From Halorhabdus salina (lineage in GTDB: Archaea > Halobacteriota > Halobacteria > Halobacteriales > Haloarculaceae): a stretch of 64,000 nucleotides of DNA. The DNA is taken from positions 171,862 through 235,861 of the forward strand of contig NZ_JACDNP010000003.1 of NCBI RefSeq assembly GCF_013839425.1. Reading direction: 5' to 3'. Numbering within the stretch: the first letter of the stretch is position 1; each line of letters begins with the position of its first letter. The position numbers were made by a program, and so were the translations under genes. The notes under the pieces are model-generated. The model searched no databases. It was not told where the DNA came from and saw only the letters and a list, made by a program, of their open reading frames with translations. Positions 63,548 to 64,000 of this stretch are shown piece after piece.

Positions 63548-63619
63548 GGGCTCGTAGATCAGTGGCAGATCGCTTCCTTCGCAAGGAAGAGGCCCCGGGT
63601 TCAAATCCCGGCGAGTCCA
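63548..63619 (+). tRNA. tRNA-Ala (anticodon CGC)
   Basis: A 72-base tRNA. The acceptor GGGCTCG pairs with CGAGTCC, with a G3-U70 wobble that is the alanine identity element, and discriminator A. The D-arm is GATC-AGTGGCA-GATC, the anticodon arm CTTCC-TTCGCAA-GGAAG with anticodon CGC, and the T-arm CCGGG-TTCAAAT-CCCGG. No intron seen, and CCA is not encoded. Confidence 0.93.
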
Positions 63620-64000
63620 TAATTCTTGCGCCGCGAGCAAATTCGCGAGCGGCGTGAATCCAAGTCGAAGCCCGGATTTGAACCCCTACCAGTCGCAGCA
63701 TCCGAGCGAAGCGAGGGTGACCGTCTGGTTTCGGTTCAAATCCCGGCGAGTCCACTCGACTCACGTCGTTCGTCTCGTTCCCTCGCCGAACATCGCAAAC
63801 GCCTCGCGTTTGCTCAATCCCGGCGTCTTCGCGAGCTAAGCGAGCGAAGGCTCGGAAGACGAACGAAGTGAGTCTTCCGGCGAGTCCACTCGACTCACGT
63901 CGTTCGTCTCGTTCCCTCGTCGAACATCGCAAACGCCTCGCGTTTGCTCAATCCCGGCGTCTTCGCGAGCCAAGCGAGCGAAGGCTCGGAAGACGAACGA
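63620..64000. repeat. tandem array carrying copies of the tRNA-Ala 3' end
   Basis: The 22-base tRNA tail at 63598-63619 recurs exactly at 63733-63754, 135 bases on, and its last 12 bases recur at 63877-63888, another 134 bases on. The stretch 63743-63876 and the following 124 bases to the window edge are the same repeat, with only two differences that I can count (in the ctcgccg/ctcgtcg and gagcta/gagcca positions). The first spacer (63620-63732) differs in sequence but has the same length. It also holds gccgcgag/gcgagcggc-type inverted repeats and an inverted T-arm-like cccggatttgaacccc at 63671-63686. No protein gene is convincing here. Confidence 0.85.

What the first reader, a model, noticed from the sequence alone, without database searches (positions are those of the whole stretch)
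63598..64000. Periodic copies of the tRNA-Ala 3' end with 134-135 base spacing
The tRNA tail (ggttcaaatcccggcgagtcca) is duplicated exactly 135 bases downstream, and its last 12 bases come again 134 bases later. The 134-base unit following the second copy is itself tandemly repeated almost perfectly (122 of 124 bases by eye). tRNA 3' ends are attachment sites for integrases, so this could be a ladder of att sites left by repeated integration, or a selfish repeat that carries the tRNA end. The constant spacing, kept even where the spacer sequence differs, is unusual.
Basis: partly seen in the sequence, partly recalled or inferred. Interest (0 to 1): 0.8.

Follow-up and report, generated by a model that had tools for sequence, protein, structure and literature searches.

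The report
tRNA-tail hairpin arrays in haloarchaea
Behind about half of the tRNA genes in this salt-loving archaeon and its relatives sit short hairpin units that each end in a copy of that same tRNA's last bases; they are likely inserted, lost and swapped by recombination at the tRNA end, and our literature searches turned up no description of them.

Summary
In this haloarchaeon 23 of 41 tRNA genes carry downstream copies of their own 3' tail; 0 of 41 carry one upstream. Between copies lies a unit, typically ~100-135 bp: hairpin A, an inverted copy of the host tRNA's T-arm, a quasi-palindromic core, then the direct tail copy. The unit pattern is in 300 of 391 sampled genomes of the class and in 0 of 241 genomes of other classes of the phylum. 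The inverted copy tracks the host tRNA. Between congeners, whole units are present or absent, exactly at tail boundaries in 6 of 19 alignable cases. Cores turn up at different tRNA genes while hairpin A mostly keeps to its tRNA or isoacceptors. Best reading: a chromosomal, tRNA-end-specific hairpin repeat that spreads and reshuffles by recombination at the tRNA tail, att-like, probably as folded DNA. Stems show no G-U preference, unlike tRNA stems, which argues against a purely RNA role. The enzyme is unknown. The window's own array runs into a 10-N assembly gap, so its copy number is unknown.

The parts
63548..63619 (+). tRNA-Ala(CGC) gene, the host tRNA
   Evidence: ARAGORN; RF00005 68.8 bits
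63598..63619 (+). original 3' tail (22 nt, T-arm to discriminator base)
   Evidence: exact search
63620..63754 (+). unit 1 (135 bp, canonical type): hairpin A, inverted T-arm copy, core, direct tail copy
   Evidence: RNA fold z-score -5.33, DNA fold z-score -3.06
63626..63657 (+). hairpin A of unit 1
   Evidence: predicted fold; related sequence at the same tRNA in G212, another family
63670..63747 (+). hairpin B of unit 1, whose outer stem pairs the inverted T-arm copy with the tail copy
   Evidence: predicted fold
63674..63682 (-). inverted copy of the tRNA T-loop/T-stem (GGATTTGAA on the + strand)
   Evidence: pattern place G000:C19:235535; host tracking tested
63683..63732 (+). quasi-palindromic core with a GA-GC-GAA-GC-GA apex
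   Evidence: sequence; fold; motif count
63733..63754 (+). second, exact copy of the 22-nt tail
63755..63888 (+). unit 2 (134 bp, second type, pyrimidine-rich start) ending in the last 12 nt of the tail (63877-63888)
   Evidence: similar stretches at tRNA-Ala(GGC) of congeners
63889..64000 (+). unit 3, copy of unit 2 (110 of 112 bases), cut by the window end and then by a 10-N assembly gap

Best explanation
The window ends in the start of a tRNA-tail hairpin array, a repeat family of haloarchaea whose units sit directly behind tRNA genes and each end in a copy of the host tRNA's own 3' tail, and these units are likely gained, lost and reshuffled by att-like recombination at that tail. Shown: the anatomy (hairpin A; inverted T-arm copy; core; direct tail copy), its tailoring to each host tRNA, its spread over the class, exact presence or absence of [unit + tail] between congeners in some comparisons, and similar cores at different tRNA genes. 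Inferred: the tail (T54 to discriminator) is the crossover region; new units enter or leave there, and arrays grow and shrink by tail-to-tail exchange; cores pass between tRNA genes through the T-arm copies that flank them, so that the outer parts stay host-specific. Also inferred: the inverted T-arm copy keeps the extra tail locked in a hairpin, so that a transcript running past the tRNA does not misfold it. The strand-specific apex (GNA triloop with GA/AG) suggests that the working form is the sense strand folded as single-stranded DNA. The recombinase is not identified and may be a host or element tyrosine recombinase, or plain homologous recombination.
For: Own-tail copies downstream: G000 24 of 43 RF00005 rows (two rows are one tRNA-Arg broken by N gaps, one of them an artefact hit, so 23 of 41), G140 21 of 43, G089 25 of 41; upstream 1 of 43 (the same artefact), 0 of 43, 0 of 41. 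G212, another family: 21 of 30 downstream, 1 of 30 upstream; G036: 11 and 0 of 30; control G398, another class: 1 of 30 downstream (a second listed tRNA gene) and 1 of 30 upstream. Unit pattern in 300 of 391 class genomes and 76 of 86 genera, reversed control 0 in every row; 40 of 53 Halobacteria against 0 of 241 others. In fetched loci 32 of 45 pattern hits have the same tail upstream at 18-22 of 22. Inverted copy: mean 9.43 of 11 for the own tail, permuted 8.22 (maximum of 300 permutations 8.52); own over generic 28, generic 3, tie 2 of 33 non-generic T-arms (one of the 28 is the N-gap row). Empty against occupied: of 40 comparisons 19 were alignable, and in 6 of these the empty flank is in register with the first base after a tail copy. 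Window array absent in G140, whose flank aligns from base 10 behind the tRNA. Core best match at the same tRNA 1 of 28 (expected 0.8), part A 9 of 28 (expected 0.8), G212 against the other family. In one genome an identical 58-bp stretch (core with its T-arm arms) lies behind tRNA-Pro and tRNA-Ser with different flanks and tails. Two tRNA-Val arrays carry the tail of another tRNA-Val. Elements recombine here: a ~28.3-kb stretch with an integrase separates tRNA-Ala(GGC) from an orphan tail and array, and in G032 a tyrosine-recombinase element is flanked by repeats made of 42 nt of tRNA-Gly plus 124 nt of the unit, with 8-9 differing bases between. Apex motif in 64 of 144 cores on the sense strand, 0 on the other strand, shuffled mean 0.085.
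Against: No recombinase is tied to the units: none of 12 PF00589 matches lies on the window's contig, and none of 61 viral-contig pattern hits has the same tail upstream. Precise loss can equally come from homologous recombination between tail repeats. 13 of 19 alignable empty/occupied comparisons are not exact, in at least 6 of them the 'empty' flank aligns inside the unit, so that a decayed unit without tail copy is there, and 21 of 40 gave no alignment. Part A keeps tRNA identity across families above chance (13 of 66, expected 2.7, after trimming), which means long vertical retention and could mean a function at the tRNA; yet this is not absolute: for G036 against the others it is 0 of 5, and one Arg/Lys pair shares part A. 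Core similarity rests on short, low-complexity sequence: 11 of 1325 same-genome pairs at different tRNA genes reach 0.8, and 3 of those are two copies of one tRNA-Asp. Within the genus the core also shows some tRNA identity, 4 of 21 (expected 1.3). The strand-specific apex is also what an RNA role would predict.
Confidence: 0.5

Rival explanations
1. The units are structured RNA in the tRNA trailer: co-transcribed hairpins that act in termination, 3' processing or tRNA dosage, with the tail copy as a decoy for processing enzymes and the inverted copy as its lock.
For: Window unit 1 folds much better than shuffles as RNA (z -5.33). The GA/GNA motif is strand-specific. Hairpin A often starts with T-rich sequence right after the tail, and part A keeps tRNA identity across families above chance.
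Against: G-U against A-C at stem positions is 146:148 in hairpin A and 178:268 in hairpin B, while acceptor and T stems of tRNAs from the same genomes give 26:2. About half of the tRNA genes lack units and the set differs between congeners. No Rfam family matched the units in the six loci scanned, which included the window's array.
Confidence: 0.2
2. Host machinery only: palindrome-prone DNA behind tRNA genes is expanded, corrected and converted by replication slippage, template switching and RadA-dependent exchange between tails, without a dedicated recombinase or selfish element.
For: Tandem duplications inside arrays (window units 2 and 3; a repeated two-unit block in G007). Tail repeats would allow exact losses. 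No linked enzyme.
Against: Does not by itself explain why the same unit anatomy sits behind tRNA genes in most of one class and was matched in none of 241 genomes of other classes, nor the recurring non-complementary positions of the core, which template switching should erase.
Confidence: 0.22
3. The copies are scars: each tail is the attR left when a large integrated element was deleted.
For: Integrative elements do use these tails. In Haloquadratum two prophage-related partial tRNA duplications are among the repeat-mediated deletions (PMC3119063, passages seen).
Against: Units share one anatomy over the class with a host-matched inverted copy; deleted elements would leave unrelated sequence.
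Confidence: 0.06
4. Assembly artefact of the draft genome.
For: The window's array ends at a 10-N gap, and another tRNA in this draft is broken by N gaps.
Against: The same kind of units is found in the single-contig genomes G140 and G089, and the pattern in 300 of 391 genomes. Only the copy number at this locus is in doubt.
Confidence: 0.02

Closest known systems
E. coli tyrT/tyrV 178-bp repeats (RttR RNA, tpr)
   Same: Tandem repeats directly behind a tRNA gene, each ending in the tRNA's 3' tail: three copies of 178 bp ending in 19 nt.
   Different: One locus (recalled) with near-identical units, against different units behind about half of all tRNA genes over much of a class. The E. coli tail copy is shorter in the T-arm (19 nt with encoded CCA), and its best inverted T-arm match is 9 of 11 (shuffled mean 6.9), so inconclusive.
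Integron attC cassette arrays
   Same: Arrays of palindromic sites with conserved ends, mismatches that make the two strands unequal, and a variable tip. attC works as a folded single strand (PMC2727003, abstract and passages seen).
   Different: No linked integron integrase found and little cargo seen; sites are tailored to tRNA genes, and the motif-bearing strand here is the tRNA sense strand.
tRNA attachment sites of archaeal tyrosine recombinases
   Same: The same 3' tRNA region, restored gene and duplicated tail. Archaeal integrases prefer the tRNA 3' end, sometimes a very short site (PMC8371274, passages seen).
   Different: Units are mostly ~100-135 bp without genes, many per genome, with a common hairpin anatomy and an inverted T-arm copy.
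REP/BIME and other bacterial palindromic repeats (recalled)
   Same: Short, chromosomal, hairpin-forming, probably non-autonomous repeats.
   Different: Tied to the exact 3' end of tRNA genes and matched to each host tRNA.

Membership tests
E. coli tyrT-type tail repeats | tandem units behind a tRNA gene, each ending in its 3' tail | tested here: met
E. coli tyrT-type tail repeats | units of one array nearly identical and of one length | tested here: not met
   unit lengths and sequences differ within arrays; window units 2 and 3 alone are near-identical
E. coli tyrT-type tail repeats | match to the RtT RNA family | tested here: not met
   only tRNA and CRISPR families matched in six loci
Integron | linked integron-type integrase gene | tested here: not met
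   no PF00589 match on the window's contig, 12 elsewhere in the genome; linkage was not tested at every array
Integron | gene cassettes between sites | tested here: inconclusive
   one NUDIX gene between tail copies at tRNA-Arg; two other far tail copies (G000 tRNA-Ser, G140 tRNA-Thr) were not examined for genes
Integron | recombination of a folded single strand | not testable with these tools
   only indirect: strand-specific apex
Integrative element att site | tail duplicated at both ends of an element that carries an integrase | tested here: not met
   met for the elements at C20 and in G032, not for the ~100-135 bp units themselves
CRISPR array | identical short repeats with unique spacers and a CRISPR repeat family | tested here: not met
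   spacer-like parts are related hairpins; the CRISPR repeats found lie outside the units
Structured RNA family | excess of G-U over A-C in stems | tested here: not met
Structured RNA family | stable transcript | not testable with these tools
   no RNA data
REP/BIME palindromic repeats | shared REP core sequence and a linked REP transposase | not tested
   recalled family; no search made

The most novel reading that the evidence does not exclude
Haloarchaeal tRNA genes serve as platforms of an integron-like system: hairpin units, and now and then a gene, are captured behind the tRNA by a tyrosine recombinase that recognises the folded sense strand, uses the tRNA tail as its core site, and lets cores move from tRNA to tRNA while an inverted T-arm copy shields the tRNA from the extra tail.
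Probability: 0.15. Interest if true: 0.95.

Novelty: categorically new. Interest (0 to 1): 0.8.

Why it matters
tRNA 3' ends are the classic landing sites of mobile DNA. Here the landing site itself has become a repeat family that is matched to each tRNA and shared by much of a class, yet nothing listed or read in our searches of an open-access library describes it. If the reading holds, it offers a natural system to ask how a repeat can live behind the most conserved genes without harming them, how integrases retarget between tRNAs, and whether folded single-strand recombination exists outside bacterial integrons. It also warns annotators: the units can give spurious ORFs and may break assemblies, as at the end of this window.

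Tried and rejected
Constant 134/135 spacing as a signal: rejected, lengths vary. Known RNA family: none at gathering thresholds in six loci, only tRNA and CRISPR repeats. Virus-borne units: 61 IMG/VR pattern hits, 0 with the same tail upstream (best 16 of 22). Five of the 61 (L284, L295, L303, L306, L322) are hairpins with T-arm-like arms but no tail copy and no tRNA gene in the stretch; in L303 the hairpin lies next to an ORF that looks like a tyrosine recombinase (read by eye); not pursued. RNA selection: G-U against A-C gives no support. Site inversion of the core by its inverted arms: 54 of 144 cores carry the directional motif, 0 carry it inverted. Random-scar origin: shared anatomy. First unit regex was wrong and gave 12 hits; replaced. 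The covariation used units preselected on the inverted copy; the unselected version is. The parts compared also come from units preselected on the inverted copy (112 units, or 144 cores with the class loci). The empty result of G036 in the pattern search was partly a matter of T-loop variants: own-tail copies are there. So the pattern undercounts, and the 0 of 241 outside the class rests on a T-loop sequence common in Halobacteria; the own-tail control outside the class is one genome only (G398, 30 of its 50 tRNA rows).

Not done: no covariance model, no protein structure prediction, no protein database search; Pfam was run on six ORFs.

Full report
1. What was reported and what is there. The 22-nt tail of tRNA-Ala(CGC) is repeated exactly 135 bases downstream, its last 12 bases come again 134 bases later, and the 134-base shift is 122 of 124 identical. 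The genome (G000, 2.86 Mb, 25 contigs) continues past the window, but the window's last base abuts a run of 10 N, so the array is cut by an assembly gap. A 365-aa piece of EF-1alpha from the window is 93% identical to that of Halorhabdus amylolytica, so the host is a haloarchaeon near that genus (inferred).

2. It is not local. The RF00005 matches of G000 were listed (43 rows), and the tRNA tails were compared with up to 1300-1500 bases on each side (a copy is at least 17 of 22 bases, or the last 10 exact, so partial copies count). 24 of 43 rows have at least one downstream copy of their own tail; two rows are one tRNA-Arg broken by N gaps (C8), one of them an artefact hit, which leaves 23 of 41. 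Upstream: 1 of 43, the same artefact. Each array copies its own tRNA: Ala, Ser, Val, Gly, Ile, Thr, Arg, Glu, Lys, Asn, Tyr, Met, His, Leu and Trp are among them (isotypes read from anticodons). Two congeners in single contigs give 21 of 43 (G140) and 25 of 41 (G089), with 0 upstream in both. G212 of another family gives 21 of 30 downstream and 1 of 30 upstream. G036, a genome without pattern matches, gives 11 and 0 of 30. A genome of another class, G398, gives 1 of 30 downstream (a second listed tRNA gene) and 1 of 30 upstream (30 of the 40, 50 and 46 tRNA rows of G036, G398 and G212 were examined).

3. Anatomy. Written from tail to tail, the canonical unit is: a Y-rich start; hairpin A, in 91 of 112 units with GA-RC-loop-GY-GA; a few bases; an inverted copy of the host T-loop and T-stem (generic form GGATTTGAA); a quasi-palindromic core (often AGTCGCAGC ... 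GACCGTCT); then GG and the direct copy TTCAAATCC + tail, ending at the discriminator base. In the window: hairpin A 63626-63657, hairpin B 63670-63747 (predicted). Units 2 and 3 of the window are of a second type with only the last 12 nt of the tail; similar stretches lie at tRNA-Ala(GGC) of congeners.

4. The inverted copy belongs to the host tRNA. In 79 segments chosen only by their tail copy and length, the best inverted match to the own tail averages 9.43 of 11; with tails permuted it is 8.22 (maximum of 300 permutations 8.52), and in shuffled bodies 6.62. Where the host T-arm is not the generic one, the inverted copy fits the own arm better in 28, the generic in 3, and ties in 2 of 33 (one of the 28 is the N-gap artefact). 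A preselected set of 76 placed the tracking at T54 to about position 64, with positions 12-17 mostly near background.

5. Spread. The pattern GGATTTGA-N34-64-GGTTCAAATCC is in 300 of 391 class genomes and 76 of 86 genera, with the reversed pattern 0 in every row. In a phylum sample it is in 40 of 53 Halobacteria and 0 of 241 others. Because other classes may have other T-loops, this contrast is weaker than it looks. In the 49 loci L068-L116, 32 of 45 pattern hits have the same tail upstream (18-22 of 22); of the 13 others 10 overlap a listed hit read on the other strand. Of 61 viral-contig hits none had the same tail upstream (best 16 of 22); five of them are hairpins with T-arm-like arms but without tail or tRNA gene. 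At the window's own locus in named relatives, own-tail copies occur behind tRNA-Ala(CGC) of, for example, Halonotius terrestris, and not in Halorhabdus amylolytica or Haloferax prahovense; 5 of 15 tRNA genes seen in 19 loci carry one.

6. Dynamics. Arrays differ between congeners at most tRNAs. In 40 occupied/empty comparisons ('empty' meaning no detected tail copy), 19 could be aligned. In 6 of these the empty flank is in register with the first base after a tail copy of the occupied one, so that a whole [unit + tail] is present or absent; one more is 3 bases off. In at least 6 of the rest the empty flank aligns inside the unit, so a decayed unit is there. G140 lacks the window's array, and its flank aligns with the G000 sequence beyond the gap. 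Of 109 units in three genomes (one an N-gap artefact) the best match lay at another tRNA for 72, at the same tRNA of another genome for 34, and in the same array for 3; 33 of 87 units with a unit at the same tRNA elsewhere matched it best. Splitting the unit explains part of this. G212 against the other family: the part before the inverted copy (A) finds the same tRNA in 9 of 28, the core (B) in 1 of 28 (expected 0.8 each). G000 against congeners: A 8 of 21, B 4 of 21 (expected 1.3). G036 against the others: 0 of 5 for both. With the last 12 nt of A trimmed and all group pairs used: A 13 of 66, B 6 of 66, expected 2.7. Same-genome pairs at different tRNA genes: core identity of at least 0.8 in 11 of 1325; three are two tRNA-Asp copies, and in the other eight part A is only 0.17-0.47 alike. 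Part A of at least 0.8: 7 of 1325, of which two are that tRNA-Asp, four are isoacceptors of one amino acid (Arg, Gly twice, Val) and one is an Arg/Lys pair. In G007 an identical 58-bp stretch stands behind tRNA-Pro and tRNA-Ser with different flanks and tails. Two tRNA-Val arrays carry the tail of another tRNA-Val. So cores move, while the outer part mostly keeps to the tRNA or its isoacceptors.

7. Link with integrative elements. An orphan tail and array at C20:50.8-51.4 kb lies beside a tyrosine integrase (PF00589), ~28.3 kb from tRNA-Ala(GGC), which itself has no tail copy: an element has pushed the array away (inferred). In G032 a tyrosine-recombinase element is flanked by direct repeats of 42 nt of tRNA-Gly plus 124 nt of the unit, with 8-9 differing bases between, so elements can carry units. 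G000 has 12 PF00589 matches (10 over the cut-off), none on the window's contig.

8. DNA or RNA. Window unit 1 folds better than shuffles as RNA (z -5.33) and as DNA of either strand (z about -3). If RNA pairing were selected, G-U should exceed A-C: it does in tRNA stems (26:2) but not in units (146:148 and 178:268). Yet one strand is marked: the apex GA-RC-GNA-GY-GA is in 64 of 144 cores on the sense strand and 0 on the other (shuffled mean 0.085), most often with GAA (34), then GGA (18), GTA and GCA (6 each). GNA loops are reported to give extraordinarily stable DNA minihairpins, with a 6-degree higher melting temperature for GAA than GTA (Yoshizawa 1997, as cited in PMC6479982; passages seen). 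I therefore favour a folded sense DNA strand. This is inference, and an RNA role stays open.

9. Known relatives. E. coli tyrT/tyrV has three 178-bp repeats ending in 19 nt of tail: the same idea at one locus. Integron attC sites are folded single strands whose strand choice depends on unpaired bases (PMC2727003, abstract and passages): similar in kind, but no linked integrase was found here and little cargo seen, with one NUDIX gene between tail copies as the exception. Archaeal integrases prefer tRNA 3' ends (PMC8371274, passages). Searches whose listings show no description of such arrays: (open-access library only; titles and starts of abstracts seen). I read passages, not whole papers, of PMC3119063, PMC8371274 and PMC9897764. 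The tyrT searches brought nothing on that locus.

10. Verdict. The array is real, widespread and host-tailored, and it changes between species. Recombination at the tRNA tail is the best-supported mechanism (0.5); enzyme and benefit are unknown. I rate it categorically new because no known kind that I tested fits all of its features, with the caveat that subscription papers were not searchable. Corrections made on checking (fuller counts, decayed units, isoacceptor pairs) did not require a change of odds.

Noticed in passing
L042 1700-2690 (G000:C21, behind tRNA-Arg): A NUDIX-domain gene (PF00293) of 144 codons sits between two copies of the tRNA-Arg tail inside an array, like a captured cassette.
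   Followed up: partly
L012 8012-9375 (G000:C10): A CRISPR array (repeat family CRISPR-DR24, 20 copies listed on the minus strand) lies about 0.5 kb beyond the tRNA-Val tail array; found.
   Followed up: no
L010 8840-9370 and G000:C20:51370-79676: A ~28.3-kb stretch, probably an integrated element, separates tRNA-Ala(GGC) from an orphan tail and array; besides the integrase at its end, two more integrase matches lie inside.
   Followed up: partly
L332 1804-5018 (G032): A small ~3-kb element with a tyrosine recombinase and a DUF7342 gene is flanked by repeats of part of tRNA-Gly plus a hairpin unit.
   Followed up: partly
L303 8498-8555, also L284, L295, L306, L322 (viral contigs): Five viral contigs carry a hairpin with T-arm-like inverted arms (GGATTTGAACC ... 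GGTTCAAATCC) but no tRNA gene in the stretch; in L303 it lies beside an ORF that looks like a tyrosine recombinase, perhaps an att hairpin.
   Followed up: partly
L009 1492-1932, minus strand: A 146-codon ORF reads antisense through the tRNA and the array (DSPGFEP motifs), a likely source of spurious gene calls in haloarchaea.
   Followed up: no
L062 about 2840-2990 (G000:C8): The tRNA-Arg(TCT) gene is broken by 10-N gaps with the same fragment on both sides of one gap, so this draft has gaps at another tRNA too.
   Followed up: no
G140:C1:2562071-2563711: A low-scoring tRNA copy with the exact tRNA-Thr(GGT) tail lies 1.5 kb downstream of that gene, perhaps a small integrated element.
   Followed up: no
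G000:C12:1552-1998: An integrase match lies about 0.8 kb behind tRNA-Gly(CCC), which lacks a tail copy in this genome but has tail copies in both congeners.
   Followed up: no
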